Shown piece after piece: positions 31,097 to 41,148 of a stretch of 64,000 bases of DNA. The notes under the pieces were generated by a model that did no database searches, was not told the origin of the DNA, and saw only the letters and a list, made by a program, of their open reading frames with translations. The DNA lies in NCBI GenBank assembly GCA_017615275.1, contig JAGAAO010000038.1, forward strand, positions 1 through 64,000, written 5' to 3'. The stretch's first letter is position 1, and the number at the start of each line of letters is the position of its first letter. Position numbers and translations under genes: made by a program. This stretch comes from Butyrivibrio sp. (GTDB lineage Bacteria; Bacillota; Clostridia; Lachnospirales; Lachnospiraceae).

Positions 31097-31280
31097 TCAA
31101 TTCTCTGGTATGCCGTGCTCCTTGAGAAGAGCTTGAAGGCGTGATACTTCATCCTTGAGGCTTGAGTTCTCGTCCTCAAGATTATCTATTATAGGTTGCA
31201 TCTTCTTCTTGGTATCAATGACTCCGTAGAAGTCGGCAAGAATGACCGGAATCGGTCGACCGACAAAGACTATGTTATCA
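31097..31280 (-). pseudogene. 3' remnant of a coding region with C-terminal coiled coil
   Basis: The reverse strand from about 31280 to the stop at 31097-31099 reads an uninterrupted frame (VGRPIPVILADFYGVIDTKK, then DNLEDENSSLKDEVSRLQ and an end in LLKEHGIPEN). The leucine-heptad tail resembles the C-termini of Rpn/PD-(D/E)XK nuclease-transposase proteins common in Lachnospiraceae, but that likeness is loose. Upstream stops show it is only a fragment. Confidence 0.4.
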
Positions 31281-31286
31281 GAAAAA

Positions 31287-31343
31287 TCTTAAGATATACC
31301 GTCGAAATTTCTTAAGATTTTTTGTATCGCGATGGGATATAAT
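31287..31343 (+). promoter_or_regulatory. Promoter region of the first FtsX permease with paired TCTTAAGAT elements
   Basis: TCTTAAGAT occurs at 31287-31295 and 31310-31318, 23 bases apart, inside a 12-bp inverted repeat that could also act as a terminator for upstream transcription. The second copy covers the -35 position of a TATAAT at 31338-31343. This is a plausible response-regulator site. Confidence 0.5.
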
Positions 31344-31459
31344 ATATCTTGTGGGGGAAGTGTGATGAATTACGATGAATTGCGCGCAGGGTTTGAAACA
31401 GCATATATTGACGGCTCGGTGGCATCCGGTGCTGTGTAGTGTAGGAGGAGAATCCTAGG

Positions 31460-33898
31460 ATGTTTTTTAGGATGTTAAAAAAAGACATAACGGACAAAAA
31501 AGGATTGAATCTGATCCTTTTGCTCTTTATGTGTTTTTCTTCGGTACTGACTGTAAGCAGTGCCGTGATGCTCTATGCCAATACGGTAGGCTTTAAGAAG
31601 AATAATGAGAAAGTAAATGCAGCGGAAGAAAAAATTATTACAACCAGAAGTTTTGGGGATACCTCCGATAAACAAGAGGCGACAATTAATTGGTTCAGGA
31701 ATCGGAAGGAAGTCGTTGATATTGAATGCGTCGATGCTATCAAATTCATGTGCGATGCAGTTGATTATTCCGAATGCGATGAGAGTTCAGACGAAGTTTT
31801 TGCAAATGGAATATACTATTACGCTTTCGATTTCTCCTCTGAACATGACAGAGTAACAGATTATGACAGCAACTTTTTTGACCTTCCTTGCGGAACGATA
31901 GCAATACCTGAGTGTATCGGTAGAAATGCCAATGTTAATATCGGTGATACGGTCAGGATTACGACTCAAATGGGGAATATATATGAGTTCAAAGTTGCCG
32001 TTATAACAAAAGATCCTGCTATGGAGGGAAGTAACAGACTTATTTTTAATAACAAAGATTTTGAAGTGTTAAAGAATGACAGCCCTGTGATCAATAGTTT
32101 CTATATGATAGATCTTGTCGATGAAGCAACGTTAAACGATACGCTTAATCTTGCCAACGATTTTTGCGAAGCGGGAGATAAAGGCGTTGTTGAAAAATTT
32201 GTTGAATTTTGCGTTGCCGCAACTATCTATCGCAACGAGATAACGCCAATTGTAATAAATATTTTTATGATCATCTTTTCTGTTTTGTCTGTGATCATGG
32301 AGTTTTTGTCGATAAGCTTTACGATCAAGACAGCTATAAAAAGTGAAGAGAAGGAGCTTGGAATAATAAAAGCTCTTGGAGTTGACTCTGCATCATTTAA
32401 CTTGCTGTTTGCAACCAAGTATGTGGTGATATCGCTGATAGCGGCAGTTGTCGGCTTTTTCGGAGGCATCGTACATGCCGAATATGTGCTTAAGAATTTT
32501 GCGTACGGACAGCTCAGGCCGGAGTTTGGGCAAATAATCGGATATGCTCTGGCTGCAGCGTTTATGGGGCTTTTAATTATTTTCATCTTTGTTGTGATCG
32601 CACTAAGGAAACTTGGAAAGATCAGTATCAGGGATGCAATCTCGGGAGAAAACAGAGGCGAGAGTTATAAAAAGGCAAAAGGACCAAAGCTTTATAAGAT
32701 AAAGAATAAAAATATTCCGTTTTATCTGGCATTTACCGATCTTATCAAAAGATTTAAGCAATACAGATTTTTGCTGTTTGCTTATATGATCGGAATCTCA
32801 ATCGTCCTTGCCGTTTTGGAAATATTGAACACTGTTCATTCACCCTATTGGGTTGAGCGGGTATGGTCAGAACCTGAGTATGATTTTAGAATGACGCTGC
32901 CCGATGAAGTTATGGAAGAGTACCGGGCAAGAGGCGGAGGATCAAAGGGGGCATACGAACTTATAAATGAAGAACTTGCGGAAGCAAATATTCCGGCAAA
33001 GCTTTGTTATGAAATGGCTTCCGCGGGAACAGTTATATATAACGGTGACAATTATGCTTTCTGTAATTTTTTTTACGACCGATCATATGATGATGAAGTG
33101 GAATTATATGAGGGTGTCAGACCGGTGCTCAGAAATGAAGTGGTGATCGATACATTTTCTTCAAAGCGGCTTGGTATAAAGGTTGGAGATAGCATCAGAA
33201 TGAAGTATCCCAAATATAATGAGGACGGACTTTCATATAGTTATATGATCGAAGATTTTATTGTGACGGGTTTTCGGGATATTACTTCGCGTGATGCATT
33301 ATTTGTTTATATGAGCGACGAGTTTACGGGGGCGTACGGCGATGTGAGCGATGTGCACGGTATAATTGATGCTCCGAAGAAGATGCATGCGGAATACGTA
33401 GAACAGATGCGCGCAATATACGGTAATAACAGTATCAGAACGATGAAGGAAGATCTTGATTATCAAAATACAACATATGATTCGTTCTTTGTTTTGTGTA
33501 AGTGGGGATTTATTCCGCTTATAGTGGGCATGATGATAATGCTGACCGTTTTGTATCAGTTCGTAAATATACTTGAAGAATTACCTGAGATTGCTTTTTT
33601 GAAAAGCTGCGGTTTCTCAAACGGAAGTATAAAAGCGTGGCAGGTTTCAAGGAGTGTGTTGATTTCCGTATTGTCATCGGTTTTGGCAATAATCTGTTTA
33701 AACACGGTGACTTTTGTTTTTCACAGGAAACTCTTTGAAATGATGGGGCTTATTATGGCATATGAACCGCAAAGAAAAGTATTCGCTTATTATATCTGCA
33801 TTCCGGTGGTGATAACAATCGTATTGGCAGCGGTCGTATATATGACACTCGGAAAAGTTGAAAAGGCTGAGTTGTCGCAGCTTCGCAATGATTTATAG
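31460..33898 (+). CDS. FtsX-family ABC transporter permease, copy 1
   Basis: The 812-residue membrane protein has an N-terminal span (about residues 18-40), an extracytoplasmic region of ~200 residues, an FtsX domain with three spans (about 260-390), a central span near residue 440, a second large external region, and a C-terminal FtsX domain (about 685-800). The same cytoplasmic entry (MLKKDITDKKGLNLILLLFM) recurs in the next gene. Such proteins work with a MacB/BceA-type ATPase, here encoded at 37028, to sense or remove peptides or lipids. AGGAGGAG precedes the start. Confidence 0.9.
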   Translation: MFFRMLKKDITDKKGLNLILLLFMCFSSVLTVSSAVMLYANTVGFKKNNEKVNAAEEKIITTRSFGDTSDKQEATINWFRNRKEVVDIECVDAIKFMCDAVDYSECDESSDEVFANGIYYYAFDFSSEHDRVTDYDSNFFDLPCGTIAIPECIGRNANVNIGDTVRITTQMGNIYEFKVAVITKDPAMEGSNRLIFNNKDFEVLKNDSPVINSFYMIDLVDEATLNDTLNLANDFCEAGDKGVVEKFVEFCVAATIYRNEITPIVINIFMIIFSVLSVIMEFLSISFTIKTAIKSEEKELGIIKALGVDSASFNLLFATKYVVISLIAAVVGFFGGIVHAEYVLKNFAYGQLRPEFGQIIGYALAAAFMGLLIIFIFVVIALRKLGKISIRDAISGENRGESYKKAKGPKLYKIKNKNIPFYLAFTDLIKRFKQYRFLLFAYMIGISIVLAVLEILNTVHSPYWVERVWSEPEYDFRMTLPDEVMEEYRARGGGSKGAYELINEELAEANIPAKLCYEMASAGTVIYNGDNYAFCNFFYDRSYDDEVELYEGVRPVLRNEVVIDTFSSKRLGIKVGDSIRMKYPKYNEDGLSYSYMIEDFIVTGFRDITSRDALFVYMSDEFTGAYGDVSDVHGIIDAPKKMHAEYVEQMRAIYGNNSIRTMKEDLDYQNTTYDSFFVLCKWGFIPLIVGMMIMLTVLYQFVNILEELPEIAFLKSCGFSNGSIKAWQVSRSVLISVLSSVLAIICLNTVTFVFHRKLFEMMGLIMAYEPQRKVFAYYICIPVVITIVLAAVVYMTLGKVEKAELSQLRNDL

Positions 33899-33961
33899 TT
33901 TAAGCTGTTGAAGATAATAAGTTTGTACATTTGAAAAATAATGTGCAAGCTTCTTTTTCTA

Positions 33962-33993
33962 TTTAAAGATTTTTTAAGAATTGTTTTTTATTA
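33962..33993 (+). promoter_or_regulatory. Promoter element of permease copy 2, shared with the ATPase gene
   Basis: A 22-base A/T-rich element (33962-33983: TTTAAAGA, T-run, AAGAATTG) matches 20 of 22 positions in the element at 36903-36924, and both are followed within a few bases by TATTAT. It may be the binding site of the adjacent response regulator in place of a -35 box. Confidence 0.5.
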
Positions 33994-34028
33994 TATGTTT
34001 AGTTGTTAGAGCAGGAGGATTCCCGCAG

Positions 34029-36470
34029 ATGTTTTTTAAGATGTTGAAAAAAGACATAGCGAATAAGAAGAGTTTAAATTTCATCCTCTTATTGTTTATG
34101 TGCTTTGCTTCAATATTGACAGTCTGCAGCTCCGTAATGATCTATGTAAATACAATAGGAATAAAGAAAAATCAGCAAAAAGTAAACTCGGCGGAATTGA
34201 TGATCTTTTGTGACCGCAATTTTAATGAGATTAAAGGAACTCGGGAAAAAAGCACAGAATGGTTTCTGGACCAAAAGGGAGTAACGGATGTTGAGTGCGT
34301 GGATGACATAGAATTATCCCCAAGTTCTGTTGATTTTGTCGGGATTGATGAAGAAGACTACAAGCTTACTGACGAAGGTTATTATTTTGCTTTCGATATT
34401 TCCATGGAACATGACCGTGTTACGGATAGTGAGAGCGAGTTTTTTGACCTGCCGTACGGAACAGTTGCTGTATCGGAATGCATACAAAGAATTGCCGGTG
34501 TCAAGGTTGGCGACGTAGTGCGTATTACTACTCAGATGGGAAATATCTATGAGTTTAAGATTGCGGTTATAACCAAAGATCCAACGTTTCCGGGGGGGGC
34601 CAGATTGCTTTTCAACAAAGAAGATTTTGAGGCACTTAAGAATGACAGTCCTGTGGTTCAAAGTTGCTACATGATCGATTTTGATGATTCAATCACAGAT
34701 GCTGATGACTGGTTCAATGTTATAAAGAATTATGTTTTGGACGAAAGCGGCATGGAAAGCGCTACTGTGTATGATATGACTTCTTTAGCAGTCTGGCATT
34801 ACGATAAGCTTGTTATTGTAAATGTTGCTATGATCATGTTTTCATGCCTGGCGATGGCGATGGTTTTTATGTCAATATATTTTACTGTCAAGACCGCAAT
34901 AAAGGATGAAGAAAAAGAATTGGCGTTGCTAAAAGCCATGGGCGTTGATTCTAAGGCTTATAACCTGTTCTTTATGGCAAAGTATCTGGCAGTAGCACTG
35001 ATTTCGGCAGTTGTCGGTTTCTTTGGGGGAATATGGATTGCGGAGTATGAACTAAAGAATATTGAAATGGGACAGCTTAAGCCACTGACAATCTATGTGG
35101 TAGGTTATGCGTTTATCGCATCGCTTTTCTGTTTTTTCCTTATTTTGATCTTTGTTGCAATTTCAATCAGAAGATTAAGTAAGATAAGCATAATAGATAT
35201 TATCTCGGGAGAAAGCAGGGGCGAGAGATTTAAGAAAACTCACGGTATACATCTTTATAAGATTAAGCATACAGATGTTCCGTTTTATCTTGCGTTTACC
35301 GATCTTATAAACGGATTGGGACGGTATAAATTTTTGATTCCGGCATATGCTTTGGGAATTGCACTCATGATTTTTGTTTACGAAGTATATAACACGGTTC
35401 ATTCACCTGACTGGTTTGCATGTACTCATGCAATACCAAAGTTTGATTTTGCAATGGAACTTCCGATTGAAAAAATGGAAGAATATCTAATAAGAGGAGG
35501 CGGTTATAAGGGGGCTTTTGATATCATCAATGAAGAATTGAAAAATGCAGATATCCCGGCTCACCTGGAATACAGAATTACAAACGGAGTCGATCTGATA
35601 TATGGCGAAGATAAGAAGACTACTTTAGGCAATATTATTTACGGCTGTTCATATGAGGATGAATGGGATACCTATAAAGGAGTAAAGCCTGTACTGAGGA
35701 ATGAAGTAATGCTTGAAGCCGTTGCTGCCAAAAAACTCGGCATCAATGTAGGAGACAATATATCTTTATGTTTTTATGAATATAAAGAGGATGATGACGC
35801 TGTTACGCAATATAATGTGACGGAAGATTTTATTGTAACGGGGCTTTGTGATTCTTTTGTGAATAGTGTTCCGGGTATATATATGAGCGATGCTTTTCCT
35901 ATTTGTAGGGGTGGACATGCCGAAGCGGTCGGAGGACATATAGATGCTCCCGAAAAGATGCATGATACGTATATAGAGCAGATGCGCGAAATGTACGGTA
36001 AGAATTGTATCAGGACAAGGAATGAAGAAACAGATCGTCAGATGGCAGGATATGACACATTATTCTTTCTACTGCGGTGGGGCTTCGTGCCGATGATAGG
36101 AATTATGATGGTTCTTTTGACTGTTTTGTATCAGGCGGTAGACATGAAAAGCGGGACACCTGAAATTGCTTTATTAAAGTGCTGCGGCTTTTCAAACAGG
36201 AGTATAAAGGCCTGGCATGTTATGAGAAGTGTATTGATCTCGTTGGTGTCATCGATACTTGCAATAATTTTTTTGAATACCGGATTACATGCTTTTATCA
36301 GAAAATCATTTGAAAAAATGGAGTATATATTAGCTTATAAACCGGTTCGCAATATATTTGGTTTATATATATGTTTCCCTGTGGTTGCCACGATCGTTCT
36401 TGCGTTGATCGTGTATATGACACTTGGAAAAGTTGGAAAAATCGAAGTTTCTAAACTTCGGGATAATTAA
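34029..36470 (+). CDS. FtsX-family ABC transporter permease, copy 2
   Basis: The 813-residue protein is a clear tandem paralog of the previous gene along its whole length: same topology, same MFF.MLKKDI start, same FDLPxGT, VRITTQMGNIYEFK, FYLAFTDLI, NTVHSP and CGFSN motifs. The external regions differ most. The pair may form a heterodimeric permease with one ATPase, or two pumps of different specificity. GCAGGAGGAT supports the ATG at 34029 over 33981. The gene has its own promoter-like element. Confidence 0.9.
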   Translation: MFFKMLKKDIANKKSLNFILLLFMCFASILTVCSSVMIYVNTIGIKKNQQKVNSAELMIFCDRNFNEIKGTREKSTEWFLDQKGVTDVECVDDIELSPSSVDFVGIDEEDYKLTDEGYYFAFDISMEHDRVTDSESEFFDLPYGTVAVSECIQRIAGVKVGDVVRITTQMGNIYEFKIAVITKDPTFPGGARLLFNKEDFEALKNDSPVVQSCYMIDFDDSITDADDWFNVIKNYVLDESGMESATVYDMTSLAVWHYDKLVIVNVAMIMFSCLAMAMVFMSIYFTVKTAIKDEEKELALLKAMGVDSKAYNLFFMAKYLAVALISAVVGFFGGIWIAEYELKNIEMGQLKPLTIYVVGYAFIASLFCFFLILIFVAISIRRLSKISIIDIISGESRGERFKKTHGIHLYKIKHTDVPFYLAFTDLINGLGRYKFLIPAYALGIALMIFVYEVYNTVHSPDWFACTHAIPKFDFAMELPIEKMEEYLIRGGGYKGAFDIINEELKNADIPAHLEYRITNGVDLIYGEDKKTTLGNIIYGCSYEDEWDTYKGVKPVLRNEVMLEAVAAKKLGINVGDNISLCFYEYKEDDDAVTQYNVTEDFIVTGLCDSFVNSVPGIYMSDAFPICRGGHAEAVGGHIDAPEKMHDTYIEQMREMYGKNCIRTRNEETDRQMAGYDTLFFLLRWGFVPMIGIMMVLLTVLYQAVDMKSGTPEIALLKCCGFSNRSIKAWHVMRSVLISLVSSILAIIFLNTGLHAFIRKSFEKMEYILAYKPVRNIFGLYICFPVVATIVLALIVYMTLGKVGKIEVSKLRDN

Positions 36471-36548
36471 AAGGCAAATAACGCCGTATACGATTATTGT
36501 TCGTAATCCACAGCGAATGATATTTACGGTACGGTGTTTATCCATAAA

Positions 36549-36862
36549 ACAACGGCTGCATACCGAATGCTAGCCCGATGAAAAAGCCACACTATATGAG
36601 GCCGGTGTGGCAGTGGTGCGAAGATAGTAACTAAATATTCTTCCCATATACCTAACATCACTTGAAGCGTACCTAGTTGGGTGAAAATTAAGCGCGTTTC
36701 CTGCGTTCGGTATGATCCCACGGCCGTTGTATCCGTTCTGTATCTACAATTTTATGTTATGCACATAATAAGCAAGAAAGGCGAGCTTGCGAATGGCCTC
36801 AGCATAAAAGAATAGTACATTAATGAGGCGAAAGAGGTTATCTGTGCGGTAACCTCTTTTGT
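36549..36862 (+). ncRNA. Candidate structured non-coding RNA with its own terminator
   Basis: This stretch between permease 2 and the ATPase gene has no good open frame but folds by eye into nested helices. P1 pairs 36549-36558 with 36721-36730 (10 bp, one G-U) and P2 pairs 36559-36567 with 36706-36714 (9 bp). A 7-bp hairpin lies at 36586-36611, and a further helix pairs 36612-36618 with 36656-36662 around an inner hairpin at 36620-36643. A canonical terminator ends it at 36862. I cannot name the family; size and multi-branched shape invite comparison with raiA/ARRPOF-type RNAs, but no conserved motif was checked. The 5' end is unknown. Confidence 0.6.
36832..36862 (+). terminator. Terminator of the candidate RNA
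   Basis: An 11-bp stem with one G-U pair (36832-36842 with 36848-36858) and a 5-base loop is followed by T residues. Confidence 0.85.
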
Positions 36863-36902
36863 CTTGCTTTGCAATACCGCTCGCGCGCTAAAAAATTCAG
36901 AA

Positions 36903-36940
36903 TTTAAAGACTTTTTAATAATTGGACTATTATTATGACT
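36903..36940 (+). promoter_or_regulatory. Promoter element of the ATPase-TCS operon
   Basis: 36903-36924 repeats the element found before permease copy 2 (20 of 22 bases identical) and is followed by TATTATG. It probably starts the transcript for the ATPase, lipoprotein and two-component genes. Confidence 0.5.
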
Positions 36941-37027
36941 TTATGATATAACACTTGGTTTTGCTGTAATAACAGCGAAGACGATAGTAAAATAATATAA
37001 GGAGAGTTGTTTAATGCGGAGGAATAC

Positions 37028-37792
37028 ATGAGTAAAACAGTTTTGGAATCGAAGGAATTATGCAAGACTTATATCGTAGATAAATACAGTAATAATGTGC
37101 TTCAGAATGTCGATTTTAAACTTGAAGAGGGAGAGTTTGTTTCCATCATGGGCCCTTCGGGTTCGGGAAAATCAACGCTTCTTTATACACTTAGCGGAAT
37201 GGATAAGCTCACTTCGGGAAAGGTAATATTCGACGGAGTGGACATTGCTTCCATGGATCACAAACAGCTTGCCGATATAAGACTAAACAAGATGGGATTT
37301 GTTTTTCAGCAGATGTATATGCTGAAAAAACTATGCATCTTTGACAATATAATCTTGCCCGGATATCAGGCATCGAAAAGCAGTAAAGATGAGATAAACG
37401 ACAGAGCCCGCAAACTCATGCAGAATCTGGGAATAGAGGATATTGCAAACAATGAGATCTTTGAAGTCTCCGGAGGACAGTTGCAGCGCGCATGCATCTG
37501 CAGGGCGCTTATAAATTCGCCGAAGATTCTTTTTGCGGATGAGCCGACGGGAGCGCTCAATTCAAAAGCTTCAGCGGAAGTAATGAATGAGCTCAGAAAA
37601 GCGAACATCGGCGGCATGACAATACTGATGGTAACTCACAGTGAGAAAGTGGCTGCAAGTTCGGAGCGTGTCATTTTTCTTGTTGACGGTAACATAAAAG
37701 GTGAGCTTAAGCTCGGAAGACAGGAAGATGAGAACGAGGGCCCGATCAGGGAAAGAATACTTAAAAACTGGCTGGATGAGATGGGATGGTAA
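37028..37792 (+). CDS. ABC transporter ATPase of MacB/BceA type
   Basis: The 254-residue ATPase has Walker A GPSGSGKSTLLY, a Q-loop GFVFQQMYML, signature VSGGQLQRACI and Walker B ILFADEPTGALNS, the LolD/MacB class that serves FtsX-type permeases. It should energise one or both large permeases upstream. GGAGG at 37018-37022 fixes the start at 37028. Its stop overlaps the next open frame. Confidence 0.94.
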   Translation: MSKTVLESKELCKTYIVDKYSNNVLQNVDFKLEEGEFVSIMGPSGSGKSTLLYTLSGMDKLTSGKVIFDGVDIASMDHKQLADIRLNKMGFVFQQMYMLKKLCIFDNIILPGYQASKSSKDEINDRARKLMQNLGIEDIANNEIFEVSGGQLQRACICRALINSPKILFADEPTGALNSKASAEVMNELRKANIGGMTILMVTHSEKVAASSERVIFLVDGNIKGELKLGRQEDENEGPIRERILKNWLDEMGW

Positions 37793-37797
37793 GATGT

Positions 37798-39192
37798 ATG
37801 AAAAATAAAGTGATCGCACTTATTTTGTCTGCATGTTTTTTCCTGAGTGCGTGCGGTGCAAAAGCGCCTGAGCAGCTTGGACTTGATGAACCTGTAAAGC
37901 CTGTAGACAATTTAAATACAAAAGAGACAAAAGAATATACCGAAGGAGGAGAAAAGGCAACTGTTATACGTGAATACGCAGCGCCTGACGGTTTATGCAA
38001 CATAAAGGTGACGGATGCATATTTTGATGTGACTCTTAATGAGGAAGATGCCATACCGTTTGAAGTCGGATTGGCATACGGAGCAGCTGTAAAAGAGGTT
38101 TGCCCTAATTATGCCCAGATACTTGAACCATATTTGTTTGACAGTATAAGAAGTGCTTTTTCGAATCTTGATGGTAACTATAAGGCTGTCGAAGTAAGAA
38201 CAAATACTTTGTTCGCGGGGCTTGATAATCGCTATAAGCAGGAAATAGACGGATTTGCAAAGGGGATTGGAGCAACCGGCAACGGAATAGCTCAGGATGG
38301 AGTTCTTACCGAAACAGAGGTCAAACTTGCGCAGATTGGTCCCGATTGCCTGAGGCAAACGGCATGTTCGGGATTATCTCTCTGGGGACAAAAAACATAC
38401 ACGGGTGATACGCTTGCGGTAAGATGCCTTGAATGGCTCCTTGGAAAAGACAAGAGCATATGCACGCTGCATACGGTGCTTCATGTCAGAAATAAGGATA
38501 AGAGTTTTACAAGTATCGGTTTCTTAGGAATGTTGAATGTTGTATCCGGAATAAATGATAACGGCTTGTTTGCGGCAATCCTTGATGTGGACACAAAAAG
38601 AGAATATGCCTGTGAAAACAAGGCATGTTACAGCTTTGCCGTTCGTCATATTTTGGAAGAATATGACAATGCAACGGATGCGGGAAACTATATGGTTGAT
38701 AACAGTGAGAATTTTACTTTCAGTCACAACGTAATGCTTACCGACGGTAAGCACTCTTACTGCGCCGAAGATACCTGCGAAAAGAGAAAAGATGATGAAA
38801 AAGGATATTCCGTTCTTCGTGATAACAAGACTCCCCTCATGAAGGATTTAAAATTGGATAATCCCGACAGTTTGTGCATCGTAAATGCTTATGTGACTGA
38901 AAACAATTACGATGCTATTTCGGGGAATGCCGTAAATGCTGTCAAATTTGCCAAGTACAACAGATGGGTGGCGGAAAGAGATAAATTCAGCATGACCGCT
39001 TTAAAAGACATGATGACTCAGGAGGTTGTAGACAGCGAGAATTCAGGCTCAAAAGTCGTTGAAAACGTGCATAGCAAGTATTTGACACAGATGATCCTGT
39101 TAGATTATCATCAAGGAAGCGTACAGGCTGCATTTACGGGAGTTGATGGTGTAACAGATAAACCGGTTTTTTATGAGATCGCAGAGTTTTAA
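37798..39192 (+). CDS. Lipoprotein related to C45-type Ntn hydrolases (acyltransferase/amidase fold)
   Basis: The 464-residue product has a lipoprotein signal ending LSA-C (Cys19). The body matches the C45/NAAA/penicillin acyltransferase layout: a candidate nucleophile Cys190 in TACSGLSLWGQKT, RCLEWLL where the family has RNLDW, GFLGMLNVVSGINDNGLFAAI, AVRHILEEYDNATDA and VMLTDGKHSYCAED. These enzymes cleave or transfer amide-linked acyl groups, usually after self-processing at the Cys. Tethered outside the membrane beside an FtsX transporter and a two-component system, it could modify or inactivate an amide-bearing compound such as an antimicrobial peptide or beta-lactam; this is inference. 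Confidence 0.78.
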   Translation: MKNKVIALILSACFFLSACGAKAPEQLGLDEPVKPVDNLNTKETKEYTEGGEKATVIREYAAPDGLCNIKVTDAYFDVTLNEEDAIPFEVGLAYGAAVKEVCPNYAQILEPYLFDSIRSAFSNLDGNYKAVEVRTNTLFAGLDNRYKQEIDGFAKGIGATGNGIAQDGVLTETEVKLAQIGPDCLRQTACSGLSLWGQKTYTGDTLAVRCLEWLLGKDKSICTLHTVLHVRNKDKSFTSIGFLGMLNVVSGINDNGLFAAILDVDTKREYACENKACYSFAVRHILEEYDNATDAGNYMVDNSENFTFSHNVMLTDGKHSYCAEDTCEKRKDDEKGYSVLRDNKTPLMKDLKLDNPDSLCIVNAYVTENNYDAISGNAVNAVKFAKYNRWVAERDKFSMTALKDMMTQEVVDSENSGSKVVENVHSKYLTQMILLDYHQGSVQAAFTGVDGVTDKPVFYEIAEF

Positions 39193-39206
39193 TAATGGTG
39201 GTGTAT

Positions 39207-39878
39207 ATGGATATTTTGCTTATTGAAGATAACGAAGAACTTGGACAGCTTATCTATGATTTTGTGAAAAATTCGGATTACAGCGTGGACTGGGTTAAAT
39301 CCGCCGAGGAAGGATTTGATAGGATGGAGAAGAATACCTACAAACTTCTTCTTTTGGATGTTATGCTCCCCGGGCAGGATGGCTTTACTGCGCTTACTCA
39401 GATAAGGAAAGAAAACAATATGCCTGTGCTTATGATGAGCGCAAGGGCGGACGATGACAGCAAGATCCTCGGAATGGAAACCGGGGCTGATGATTATATA
39501 GAAAAACCATTTTCGATTCCTGTGCTTTTGTCCAAGATAAAAGCACTTCTAAGAAGATCATATCCGGATCAGGATAACGGAATCCTTACATATAAGAGTA
39601 TTAAAGTTGATATAGGTGCAAGAACTGTGACCAAGGCGGGAAAAGCTTTGGATATTACGGGAAAAGAATTCGATATTCTCGTATGTCTTATGAAGAATGC
39701 CGGCAAAGTGGTTGATAAGAATGCACTGTTCGATGAAGTTTGGGGATATTACAGCGATACTGAGATGAGTTCGCTGAATGTATATATAAGATGGCTGCGG
39801 GAAAAGATTGAAGAAAACCCAAAGGAACCTGAATACATAATAACAATCTGGCGTGTAGGATATAGATTCGGAGAGTAA
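39207..39878 (+). CDS. OmpR-family response regulator
   Basis: The 223-residue regulator has a receiver domain with acidic pocket IEDNEEL, phospho-acceptor Asp51 in LLLDVMLPGQDGF, Lys in EKPFSIP, and a C-terminal winged helix ending ITIWRVGYRFGE. It is followed one base later by its histidine kinase. The ATG at 39207 behind GGTGG is preferred over 39195. Likely targets are the shared A/T-rich elements before the permease and ATPase genes. Confidence 0.94.
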   Translation: MDILLIEDNEELGQLIYDFVKNSDYSVDWVKSAEEGFDRMEKNTYKLLLLDVMLPGQDGFTALTQIRKENNMPVLMMSARADDDSKILGMETGADDYIEKPFSIPVLLSKIKALLRRSYPDQDNGILTYKSIKVDIGARTVTKAGKALDITGKEFDILVCLMKNAGKVVDKNALFDEVWGYYSDTEMSSLNVYIRWLREKIEENPKEPEYIITIWRVGYRFGE

Positions 39879-39879
39879 T

Positions 39880-41148
39880 ATGAAAAGATATCTAAAGTAT
39901 TGCATGGTTGTAGCTTTGTATTTTCTCTGCTGGATGGCGGTTATATATGTTGTTTTTAAGAAGTGCTCCGCGAACGATCACAGGAACCGAATAACATATA
40001 TGAACCGAATGACCGAGCAGATATCACAAACCGGTGAAATGCCTGATCTTGAAGATTTTCCCGATGAAGACAGGGCTATAGATATTCGGATATACAGTTC
40101 TGCTGACAGAGTCCCCGGATGGGTCGGCGGAGAAGACAATACCTACGTATGGACACTTAAGGATGAGAATGGGAACATAACCGGATTTGTAAGATATGTT
40201 TTTAAGTCCAACACAGCAAACAGGATGTTTATTCTTGCCGAGTTGTCGGCTTTTGTTTTTTTCATACCTCTTGTTGTATGCTGGCTGGTAATGGACAGAA
40301 GAGTTTTAAAGCCGTTTAGAGACTTTTCCGATTATCCCGAGAAGCTCTCAAAAGGGCTTACTTCCGACGGACTTCCCGAGACCAAGAGCCGTCTGTTTGG
40401 AAAGTATGTCTGGGGCATGAATATGCTGAGCGACAAGCTTGAATATGACAGAAAAGAAATCGAGAGACTTCTTTATGACAGGAAGAAGTTCATATCTACT
40501 CTTGCACACGGTATCAAAACTCCGGTGGCAAATATAAAGCTCTACTCCGAAGCTATAGGGGCAGGGCTTTACAGGGGCGGTGTTCCCGATGAGAATGACA
40601 GCAAGATAGCGGAAAAGATAAATAAGAATGCGGATGATATTACCGAGCTTGTCAGGGGTATACTTGAAGATCCCGGTGCGCTTAAGAGTTCTTACAATCC
40701 CAAGTTTGAGAGTTTCTATCTTCAGGATATAAAAGATAAACTTATAGAAGATTTCCAAAACAGATGTATGGTGAACAACACGCCTTTTGAAGTTGAGCTT
40801 ACAGGCAATCCGCTTGTTACAAGTGATATAGGCATGGTGATCAAGTGCCTTACGCAGCTTATGGAAAATGCCATTAAGTACGGTGACGGAACGGGCATAA
40901 AGGTTAAGCTTTACAGGCAGGATGACGTCACGTTTTTCAGCGTGATCAACAATGGCGTGACCATAAATAAGGAGGAGATTCCTTTTCTTTTCAACTGTTA
41001 TTACAGAGGGTCCAATTCCGCAGACAAAGAGGGCAGCGGTATAGGTCTCTATGAGGCGAGGTCAGTTGCAAGAAGTCTTGGCGGTGACATAATCATGAAC
41101 ATAAGTGGCAACAAAACCGAGGTTCTTATGTACGTTACAAAAGTGTGA
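39880..41148 (+). CDS. Sensor histidine kinase
   Basis: The 422-residue kinase has two membrane spans (about residues 8-27 and 118-138) framing an external sensor of about 90 residues. The cytoplasmic part carries the H-box at His210 (LAHGIKTPVANIKLYSE) and an HATPase domain with MENAIKYGDGTG and GSGIGLYEARSVA. The small sensor and nearby FtsX transporter resemble peptide- or envelope-sensing kinases that detect via the transporter. It completes the operon. Confidence 0.93.
   Translation: MKRYLKYCMVVALYFLCWMAVIYVVFKKCSANDHRNRITYMNRMTEQISQTGEMPDLEDFPDEDRAIDIRIYSSADRVPGWVGGEDNTYVWTLKDENGNITGFVRYVFKSNTANRMFILAELSAFVFFIPLVVCWLVMDRRVLKPFRDFSDYPEKLSKGLTSDGLPETKSRLFGKYVWGMNMLSDKLEYDRKEIERLLYDRKKFISTLAHGIKTPVANIKLYSEAIGAGLYRGGVPDENDSKIAEKINKNADDITELVRGILEDPGALKSSYNPKFESFYLQDIKDKLIEDFQNRCMVNNTPFEVELTGNPLVTSDIGMVIKCLTQLMENAIKYGDGTGIKVKLYRQDDVTFFSVINNGVTINKEEIPFLFNCYYRGSNSADKEGSGIGLYEARSVARSLGGDIIMNISGNKTEVLMYVTKV

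What the first reader, a model, noticed from the sequence alone, without database searches (positions are those of the whole stretch)
31460..41148. Ten-kilobase envelope-response module: two paralogous FtsX permeases, an RNA, one ATPase, an Ntn-hydrolase lipoprotein and a two-component system
Seen: tandem 812/813-residue permeases, one ATPase of the matching class, a lipoprotein with C45-type motifs, and an OmpR regulator with a short-sensor kinase, all co-directional. Known: FtsX-type transporters with such two-component systems (Bce/Mac classes) respond to antimicrobial peptides or cell-wall stress. Inference: the lipoprotein is a surface amidase or acyltransferase that modifies the compound which the transporter senses or removes, giving a sense-modify-expel system I do not know as a described unit.
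Basis: partly seen in the sequence, partly recalled or inferred. Interest (0 to 1): 0.75.

Follow-up and report, generated by a model that had tools for sequence, protein, structure and literature searches.

The report
Sensor-controlled membrane pump with surface amidase
A gut bacterium carries a switchable set of genes in which a membrane ABC transporter is paired with a surface enzyme of the penicillin-acylase type and a two-part sensor; the set recurs in many gut Clostridia and may pull an amide-linked compound out of the membrane and break it down.

Summary
The core observation holds: two paralogous 8-helix FtsX permeases (P1, P2), one ATPase, a lipoprotein of the C45 Ntn-hydrolase family, an OmpR regulator and a kinase lie in one direction at 31460-41148. 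The association is real. Of 56 named-genome loci with enough flank around the lipoprotein gene, 52 also hold ATPase, permease, regulator and kinase. Among 397 family genomes, high-scoring permeases and full-length lipoproteins occur in the same six. A 21-bp operator, TTTAAAGATTTTTTAAGAATT, precedes the transporter genes in 64 of 67 loci; the window has two copies, before P2 and before the ATPase, none before P1. The permease pair is a lineage-specific duplication, seen in 0 of 80 loci. Related permease loci without the lipoprotein carry operator-like sites (13 of 13 examined). The Bce label does not fit: 8 helices, two extracellular domains, a ~90-residue sensor. Closest in working is E. coli YbbAP-TesA; closest in gene content is nsr-nsrFP-nsrRK. 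I read it as a sensor-controlled extract-and-hydrolyse machine for a membrane-partitioned amide. Fold, substrate and complex are untested, and the 'RNA' is unproven.

The parts
31460..33898 (+). P1: 8-helix FtsX-type (Type VII) ABC permease, paralogue of P2, 812 aa; no operator upstream
   Evidence: sister of P2 with SH-aLRT 100 in a quick tree; 52.6% identical to P2
33919..33952 (+). terminator-like hairpin between P1 and P2
   Evidence: consensus scan only; 14 sites found, 7.4 expected
33962..33982 (+). operator, perfect match to TTTAAAGATTTTTTAAGAATT, upstream of P2
   Evidence: best of all sites in the 64-kb window, 33.1 bits
34029..36470 (+). P2: 8-helix FtsX-type permease, 813 aa; operator upstream, as for the single permease of the nearest relatives
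36471..36870 (+). structured intergenic stretch (orphan RNA or 3' region), with a terminator-like hairpin at 36830-36860
   Evidence: z -6.0, -3.4 for 36471-36760; no Rfam family; no homologue found beyond short stretches
36903..36923 (+). second operator, TTTAAAGACTTTTTAATAATT, upstream of the ATPase
   Evidence: second best site of the window, 31.1 bits
37028..37792 (+). ABC ATPase, MacB/LolD class, 254 aa
   Evidence: 62-84% identical in relatives
37798..39192 (+). C45-family Ntn-hydrolase lipoprotein, 464 aa; lipid Cys19; predicted nucleophile Cys190 (codon 38365-38367)
   Evidence: NF040521 89.6 bits; conservation in 71 sequences
39207..39878 (+). OmpR/PhoB-type response regulator, 223 aa from ATG
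   Evidence: Pfam Response_reg and Trans_reg_C
39880..41148 (+). sensor histidine kinase, two helices around about 90 extracytoplasmic residues, 422 aa
   Evidence: Pfam HisKA and HATPase_c; hydropathy over 45 kinases

Best explanation
This is a conserved, probably self-regulated envelope module built around a Type VII (mechanotransmission) ABC transporter. Shown by sequence: an 8-helix permease with two large extracellular domains, its ATPase, a lipid-anchored C45 Ntn hydrolase and a two-component system are inherited together, and one operator-like sequence marks the transporter genes. Inferred: a harmful hydrophobic compound carrying an N-acyl amide bond enters the outer leaflet of the membrane; the kinase detects it or the damage; the regulator binds the operator and raises transporter and hydrolase; ATP-driven motion of the permease lifts the compound out of the membrane and hands it to the hydrolase docked on the two extracellular domains; Cys190 cleaves the amide. 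It would work like YbbAP-TesA, with an unrelated amide hydrolase instead of a serine esterase and with its own sensor. In this Butyrivibrio the permease has duplicated (P1 outside the operator, P2 under it), so one ATPase and one hydrolase may serve two permeases with differing outer domains.
For: Co-occurrence: 52 of 56 loci with at least 6 kb left and 3.5 kb right of the lipoprotein gene (24 of the 80 loci lie nearer a contig end and were left out) hold ATPase, permease, regulator and kinase. Beside the module the commonest other family is generic ABC ATPases (24 of 77 loci, either side); the next is in 6 of 77. Exclusivity: in 397 family genomes, permeases above 940 bits and full-length lipoproteins occur in the same six; the next permeases score 454 bits or less, and 0 of 13 such loci examined encode the lipoprotein. 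Regulation: operator within 6 mismatches in 64 of 67 upstream regions, against 4 of 201 random 250-base stretches of the same loci; a PWM from 64 non-window sites puts its two best window hits before P2 and before the ATPase (33.1 and 31.1 bits; next 9.7; best of 20 shuffled windows, one strand each, 12.5). Enzyme: Cys190, Arg186, Arg209, Trp213 and Asn363 in 71 of 71, Glu/Asp212 in 71, Asn253 in 69; 71 of 71 match NF040521; hhalign places Cys190, the Asn253 motif and His-Asn 310-311 on the matching residues of a C45 relative, which itself matches penicillin V acylase 3pva at E 0.0024; the R-x-x-[E/D] and Asn363 motifs match that family by eye only. Partnership: lipoprotein distances follow permease distances after allowing for the ATPase (partial r 0.41-0.69) more than they follow the regulator (0.08-0.37). 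Precedent: YbbAP-TesA (abstract, passages and Discussion of PMC12646458). Four further operator-like sites in the genome precede HAAS-toastrack, MFS, alpha/beta-hydrolase and lipoprotein genes.
Against: No structure could be predicted, so fold and docking are untested. The profile of the 71 lipoproteins finds no solved structure even at E 1, Pfam AAT matches only 5 of 71, and hhalign to the C45 relative gives 5% probability (E 0.008) and leaves the Arg209 stretch and Asn363 unaligned. The residue before Cys190 is Ala (51), Cys (10), Ser (7) or Asn (3), not the Gly of fungal isopenicillin N acyltransferase (recalled), so autoprocessing is uncertain. Distance correlation cannot fully separate interaction from linkage. 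Permease profile A3 was built from lipoprotein-linked permeases, so part of the score gap is built in, and that search scored only two candidates per genome. The version without the lipoprotein shows that such transporters and sensors do not need a hydrolase. The operator was found in and tested on largely the same loci; whole-genome sites number 7 against 2 for the reversed pattern, and one of the 7 lies inside a gene. Three of 67 upstream regions have no operator, and binding by the regulator is inferred only. Four of 56 loci lack a partner.
Confidence: 0.5

Rival explanations
1. Antimicrobial-peptide resistance unit of the Nsr kind: the kinase senses an exogenous (lipo)peptide or beta-lactam-like antibiotic, the lipoprotein inactivates it by amide hydrolysis, and the transporter independently expels it or frees its target. 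Enzyme and pump act in parallel, not as one complex.
For: nsr-nsrFP-nsrRK of Streptococcus agalactiae combines a membrane-anchored protease, an ABC transporter and a two-component system (passages of PMC5786555); same gene classes here; patchy presence, 2 of 79 genomes of the genus, own included, as expected of a resistance trait; an operator-like site before an MFS gene.
Against: Permease and kinase are not of the BceB/BceS build. The hydrolase is tied to one permease subclass, which a parallel enzyme would not need.
Confidence: 0.25
2. Endogenous envelope maintenance: the module removes or recycles an N-acylated membrane lipid or lipoprotein by-product made by the cell, and the sensor responds to its build-up.
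For: YbbAP-TesA is proposed to act on lysophospholipids or acyl-CoA (Discussion of PMC12646458); related permeases without the hydrolase occur in 67 further family genomes; an operator-like site before HAAS-toastrack genes, a pairing linked with membrane stress (passages of PMC11237479).
Against: The lipoprotein is found full-length in only 6 of 397 family genomes and 2 of 79 of the genus, which is rare for housekeeping.
Confidence: 0.15
3. Maturation and export of a self-made N-acylated product: the Ntn hydrolase removes a protecting acyl group, as prodrug peptidases do, while the transporter exports the product.
For: C45/penicillin-acylase relatives cleave N-acyl groups (family knowledge); MacB-type exporters carry natural products (recalled).
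Against: No biosynthetic family recurs beside the module among flanking ORFs of 77 loci (within 5 kb; only the 12 commonest clusters were printed); a neighbouring two-component system and the operator point to an inducible response.
Confidence: 0.05
4. The lipoprotein is a catalytically dead binding protein that presents ligand to the kinase or permease.
For: Lipoproteins often serve as receptors; Pfam AAT scores are weak.
Against: Cys190, Arg209, Asn363 invariant in 71 of 71, Asn253 in 69; a binding-only protein would hardly keep this set.
Confidence: 0.05

Closest known systems
YbbAP-TesA of Escherichia coli (Type VII ABC transporter with hydrolase; PMC12646458)
   Same: One ATPase, one internally duplicated permease with two extracytoplasmic MacB-like domains, one extracytoplasmic hydrolase encoded beside them; permease profile reaches YbbP (9ge6) weakly, E 0.036.
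   Different: 8 helices here, 10 there; C45 Ntn cysteine hydrolase here, GDSL serine esterase TesA there; lipid-anchored hydrolase, neighbouring two-component system and operator here.
nsr-nsrFP-nsrRK of Streptococcus agalactiae (passages of PMC5786555)
   Same: Membrane-anchored hydrolase, ABC transporter and OmpR-type two-component system in one locus.
   Different: SaNSR is a serine protease cutting nisin; NsrP is BceB-type; here the hydrolase is of Ntn type by sequence and the permease has two extracellular domains.
BceAB-RS (Peptide-7 exporter) systems
   Same: ABC transporter with neighbouring OmpR-type two-component system.
   Different: 10 helices, a single extracellular domain between helices VII and VIII and a loop-less kinase (recalled) there; none of these here.
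C45 (isopenicillin N acyltransferase) and choloylglycine/penicillin V acylase Ntn hydrolases
   Same: NF040521 above cut-off for the window protein; predicted nucleophile and Arg, Asp/Glu, Asn, Asn set conserved (partly by eye).
   Different: Lipid-anchored, a conserved N-terminal region of about 170 residues before Cys190, usually Glu at the Asp position, and linkage to a transporter and sensor.
Unnamed permease-ATPase-RR-HK sets of other Lachnospiraceae
   Same: Same permease family, an operator-like site upstream in 13 of 13 examined, regulator and kinase nearby in 11 of 13, ATPase in 12 of 13 (one shortened).
   Different: No C45 lipoprotein in 13 of 13 examined; permease scores 454 bits or less against 940 or more.

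Membership tests
BceAB-RS | permease with 10 helices and one large extracellular domain between VII and VIII | tested here: not met
   8 helices by hydropathy, extracellular domains after helix 1 and helix 5, over 58 sequences (one peak was split in two by the script and counted once)
BceAB-RS | intramembrane-sensing kinase without extracytoplasmic domain (recalled) | tested here: not met
   about 90 residues between the two helices, 45 kinases
BceAB-RS | adjacent OmpR-type two-component system | tested here: met
   52 of 56 loci
YbbAP-TesA-type Type VII ABC with hydrolase | internally duplicated FtsX permease with two extracytoplasmic domains | tested here: met
   two FtsX matches per permease
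YbbAP-TesA-type Type VII ABC with hydrolase | 10 helices with a linking pair | tested here: not met
   8 helices by hydropathy
YbbAP-TesA-type Type VII ABC with hydrolase | partner is a GDSL serine hydrolase | tested here: not met
   partner matches C45_proenzyme
YbbAP-TesA-type Type VII ABC with hydrolase | 2:1:1 complex with hydrolase on the extracytoplasmic domains | not testable with these tools
   structure prediction switched off
C45 Ntn hydrolase (NF040521) | profile score above curated cut-off | tested here: met
   89.6 against 85 bits for the window protein; 71 of 71 match at E 0.001 or better (scores of the other members against the cut-off were not shown)
C45 Ntn hydrolase (Pfam AAT PF03417) | gathering score | tested here: not met
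   21.3 against 23.2 bits; 5 of 71 at E 0.01
C45 Ntn hydrolase | catalytic Cys and supporting Arg, Asp/Glu, Asn, Asn (roles recalled) | tested here: met
   conservation; Cys and first Asn aligned by hhalign (5% probability); Arg, Asp/Glu and second Asn matched by eye to the R-N-x-D and T-N motifs
C45 Ntn hydrolase | alpha-beta-beta-alpha fold and autoproteolysis at Cys | not testable with these tools
   structure prediction switched off
Bacterial lipoprotein | lipobox with cysteine after a signal peptide | tested here: met
   LSAC, Cys19; Cys in 65 of 71 rows, 3 gaps, 3 other residues
Nsr nisin-resistance operon | SaNSR-type serine protease | tested here: not met
   hydrolase matches C45, no protease family

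The most novel reading that the evidence does not exclude
A sensor-controlled 'extract and de-acylate' machine: a Type VII ABC transporter of Clostridia that recruited an Ntn amide hydrolase, independently of the YbbAP-TesA esterase, by inserting it into an older permease-ATPase-sensor regulon. Transporter, enzyme and sensor form one surface complex, and lineages vary it by duplicating the permease (window) or the enzyme (L022, L087) around a single ATPase.
Probability: 0.4. Interest if true: 0.75.

Novelty: new variant of a known kind. Interest (0 to 1): 0.6.

Why it matters
Type VII ABC transporters are typically defined by their extracytoplasmic partner (Discussion of PMC12646458); YbbAP-TesA (2025) is the one I found in print that hands substrate to a docked lipid hydrolase. 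This module would be a second, convergent example with a different chemistry, in gut Clostridia, and with its own sensor and operator, so its substrate can be sought by asking what switches the operator on. The operator also ties together a wider, unnamed family of permease-ATPase-sensor sets in Lachnospiraceae and a candidate envelope regulon.

Tried and rejected
Considered and rejected. (1) One co-transcribed 10-kb unit: hairpins and operators probably split it into P1, P2 and ATPase-to-kinase stretches. (2) TTAAGA repeats upstream of P1 as a regulator site: they belong to an interspersed palindromic repeat, about 31263-31327, with matches in 16 of 41 genomes, all of one genus, and the operator PWM scores below zero there. 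(3) Heterodimeric permease pair: each permease is already an internal duplicate, relatives use one, and P1 and P2 are sisters. (4) Known riboswitch or sRNA in the gap: no Rfam match at gathering score, two chance matches at E 1.5 and 2.1. (5) Anti-phage defence: no PADLOC match for P1, P2 or the lipoprotein. (6) Biosynthetic-cluster transporter: the commonest flanking family is generic ABC ATPases, 24 of 77 loci, the next is in 6 of 77. (7) Direct match of the lipoprotein to a solved structure: none at E 1.

Led nowhere: paper searches for the module by gene names listed no paper that describes it (listings only); Pfam on the 24-codon frame upstream of P1 gave nothing.

Rows dropped before counts. 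One search leaves out 24 of 80 loci near contig ends; its four exceptions are L037 and L043 (no sensor pair within reach), L047 (only the lipoprotein by tblastn, though one search shows a permease ORF beside it) and L086 (no ATPase; permease match stops at residue 625 against the lipoprotein). The P-P tandem count (0 of 80) includes those 24 cut loci, in which a second permease could lie beyond the end. One search uses 67 of 80 loci with a readable upstream. Alignments A2 (71 rows of 73 possible) and A3 (58 rows of 69) hold only uninterrupted, near full-length proteins, from which I left a few out by hand. One search reported 120 relatives and kept 80. One search opened 13 loci, one per genome, from the 67 further genomes; one search scored at most two candidates per genome.


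Full report
What is there. ORF calls and profile searches confirm six co-directional genes at 31460-41148: permeases P1 (812 aa) and P2 (813 aa), each with two FtsX matches; an ATPase of the MacB/LolD class; a lipoprotein; an OmpR-type regulator; a kinase. The window is part of contig C4 of a 3.18-Mb, 99-contig assembly, 84.8% complete. It shares its genus with a genome (G482) whose two lipoprotein hits have nearly the same contig coordinates as those of a record labelled Butyrivibrio (L022), so I take the host to be Butyrivibrio (inference).

The association is real. The lipoprotein has full-length relatives in 6 of 397 family genomes, own included; the five other matches in that search are short and weak. 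All five other full-length relatives sit with ATPase, permease, regulator and kinase. A scan of named genomes gave 120 relatives, 80 kept: Butyrivibrio, Pseudobutyrivibrio, other Lachnospiraceae, Ruminococcaceae/Saccharofermentans, Acetivibrio mesophilus and one Treponema MAG, many from ruminant guts by their titles. Of the 56 with enough flank, 52 hold all four partners. Gene order varies (P-ATP-LIP-RR-HK, ATP-P-LIP-RR-HK, RR-HK-ATP-P-LIP) while content does not, which argues for functional linkage. Beside the module the commonest other family is generic ABC ATPases (24 of 77 loci); the next is in 6 of 77.

What is peculiar to the window. None of the 80 loci shows two permeases in tandem, 24 of them being cut by a contig end. 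P1 and P2 are sisters (SH-aLRT 100, quick tree), 52.6% identical, and each is 42-48% identical to the single permease of the nearest relatives. Their extracellular domains differ more (47-49% identical) than the rest (59%), but the same pattern holds for P2 against the eight nearest other permeases, so it is no proof of new specificity. Two other loci duplicate the lipoprotein instead (L022; L087). In 79 genomes of the genus the lipoprotein occurs in 2, own included, so the module is an accessory trait.

Regulation. Upstream regions of the transporter genes share a 21-bp near-direct repeat, TTTAAAGATTTTTTAAGAATT, two TTTAA half-sites 11 bp apart, as OmpR/PhoB regulators bind (general knowledge): at most 6 mismatches in 64 of 67 loci, against 4 of 201 random stretches, which could themselves include the site. 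Loci with the sensor genes upstream still carry it before the ATPase. A PWM from 64 sites outside the window finds two strong sites in the whole window: 33962-33982 (33.1 bits) before P2 and 36903-36923 (31.1) before the ATPase; the next scores 9.7 and the best of 20 shuffled windows (one strand each) 12.5. P1 has none; the TTAAGA repeats before it are part of a palindromic interspersed repeat of the genus. So P2, ATPase, lipoprotein, regulator and kinase look like the inherited operon, now split in two, and P1 an added copy outside the switch (inference). In the whole genome the loose pattern gives 7 sites against 2 for the reversed control. Two are the ones above, one lies inside a gene, and four lie about 30 to 113 bases before starts in the right direction: HAAS plus toastrack (PF22564, PF13349), an MFS transporter, a membrane-anchored alpha/beta-hydrolase, and a lipoprotein without a Pfam match. 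HAAS and toastrack are linked with membrane stress (passages of PMC11237479). This is a candidate regulon, not a proven one.

An older set without the enzyme. A permease profile over the 397 family genomes (two candidates scored per genome) splits cleanly: 8 genes at 943-1069 bits in the six lipoprotein genomes, then 454 bits and below, down to the cut-off, in 67 others. The second copy in G089 is also followed by the start of a lipoprotein gene at its contig end (25.8 bits over 91 codons). Of 13 lower-scoring loci opened, 13 have an operator-like site upstream of the permease on its strand (19.0-31.8 bits), 12 an ATPase (one shortened), 11 regulator and kinase nearby, and none the lipoprotein. 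The simplest history is that a permease-ATPase-sensor regulon came first and the C45 enzyme was inserted once, together with divergence of the permease (inference; the profile was built from lipoprotein-linked permeases, which widens the gap).

The enzyme. NF040521 matches 71 of 71 lipoproteins; Pfam AAT does not pass its cut-off for the window protein and matches 5 of 71. Cys190, Arg186, Arg209, Trp213 and Asn363 are invariant, Asn253 stands in 69 of 71, position 212 is Glu (57) or Asp (14), position 383 is Arg in 70 and Lys only in the window. hhalign aligns a C45 relative at Cys-Ser, Asn-x-x-Gly and His-Asn, though with low probability (5%, E 0.008), and leaves the Arg209 and Asn363 stretches out; those I match by eye to the R-N-x-D and T-N motifs of seven C45 and choloylglycine-type proteins. 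The C45 relative itself matches penicillin V acylase 3pva at E 0.0024. So the enzyme class is well supported by sequence, the fold is not shown, and neither substrate nor autoprocessing is known. A conserved region of about 170 residues lies between the lipid anchor and Cys190; if the chain is cut there, it would stay on the membrane and hold the catalytic chain (inference).

The transporter. Hydropathy over 58 permeases gives 8 helices and two extracellular domains of roughly 210-225 residues after helices 1 and 5. BceB has 10 helices and one such domain (passages of PMC5786555); YbbP has 10 helices and two (passages of PMC12646458). The profile reaches YtrF (E 2.8e-12), LolF (0.0019) and weakly YbbP (0.036) and MacB (0.088) among solved structures. 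A permease of this build would serve as a monomer with two ATPases (inference from YbbP's 2:1:1 complex). Distances among 58 loci plus the window show the lipoprotein following the permease more closely than the regulator once the ATPase is allowed for; linkage alone may explain part of it.

Mechanism and novelty. The best precedent for the working is YbbAP-TesA, where the transporter is proposed to lift hydrophobic molecules from the membrane and present them to a docked hydrolase (Discussion of PMC12646458). The best precedent for the gene set is nsr-nsrFP-nsrRK, hydrolase, pump and sensor together. The module fails defining features of both families, so I file it as a new variant of a known kind. 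Seven paper searches aimed at the module listed no description of it in the open-access library; three more were aimed at the precedents and the regulon. I saw listings only, except passages of PMC5786555 and PMC11237479 and the abstract, passages and Discussion of PMC12646458. Subscription journals are mostly not covered.

The RNA. The stretch 36471-36870 folds well (z -6.0), less so for 36471-36760 without its end hairpin (-3.4; two of 26 other window pieces score lower; a 183-nt core gives -4.8), matches no Rfam family at gathering score and has no relative in the 61 and 299 genomes searched beyond short stretches and a 29-base dispersed repeat at 36864-36892. It may be a 3' region ending the P2 transcript. 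It is not part of the conserved module: in the relatives that place the permease before the ATPase, 25 of 28 measured gaps are 28 bases or less (the others 105, 106 and 247).

Noticed in passing
31263-31327: Palindromic interspersed repeat (AAAAATCTTAAGA ... TTCTTAAGATTTTT) upstream of P1; 11 matches in the own genome, itself included, and matches in 16 of 41 genomes searched, all of one genus. Function unknown.
   Followed up: partly
36864-36892: Short dispersed repeat beside the hairpin after P2, with 10 further matches in the own genome and more in congeners.
   Followed up: no
31365-31439: 24-codon frame with no Pfam match just before P1; by memory it resembles the start of a DEAD/DEAH helicase, possibly a gene remnant.
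   Followed up: partly
L109:4688-6087, L110:7451-8799, L111:2805-3868, L113:7334-8483: Operator-like sites before HAAS-toastrack, MFS, membrane alpha/beta-hydrolase and lipoprotein genes elsewhere in the genome: candidate regulon.
   Followed up: partly
L022:787-5995 and L087: Duplicated C45 lipoprotein genes in a Butyrivibrio MAG and in Acetivibrio mesophilus: the enzyme, not the permease, was doubled, as far as the cut L022 contig shows.
   Followed up: no
L090: The whole module in a Treponema MAG from horse faeces: transfer to another phylum, or contamination of the bin. Its upstream lacks the operator.
   Followed up: no
39880-41148: The kinase phospho-acceptor motif reads HGIKTP, with Gly where Glu or Asp is usual (recalled); conserved in at least 85% of 45 kinases.
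   Followed up: no
37798-39192: The window lipoprotein alone among 71 has Lys instead of Arg at position 383.
   Followed up: no
G089 (L014 and L184): One genome appears to hold two separate lipoprotein-linked modules, the second cut by a contig end.
   Followed up: partly
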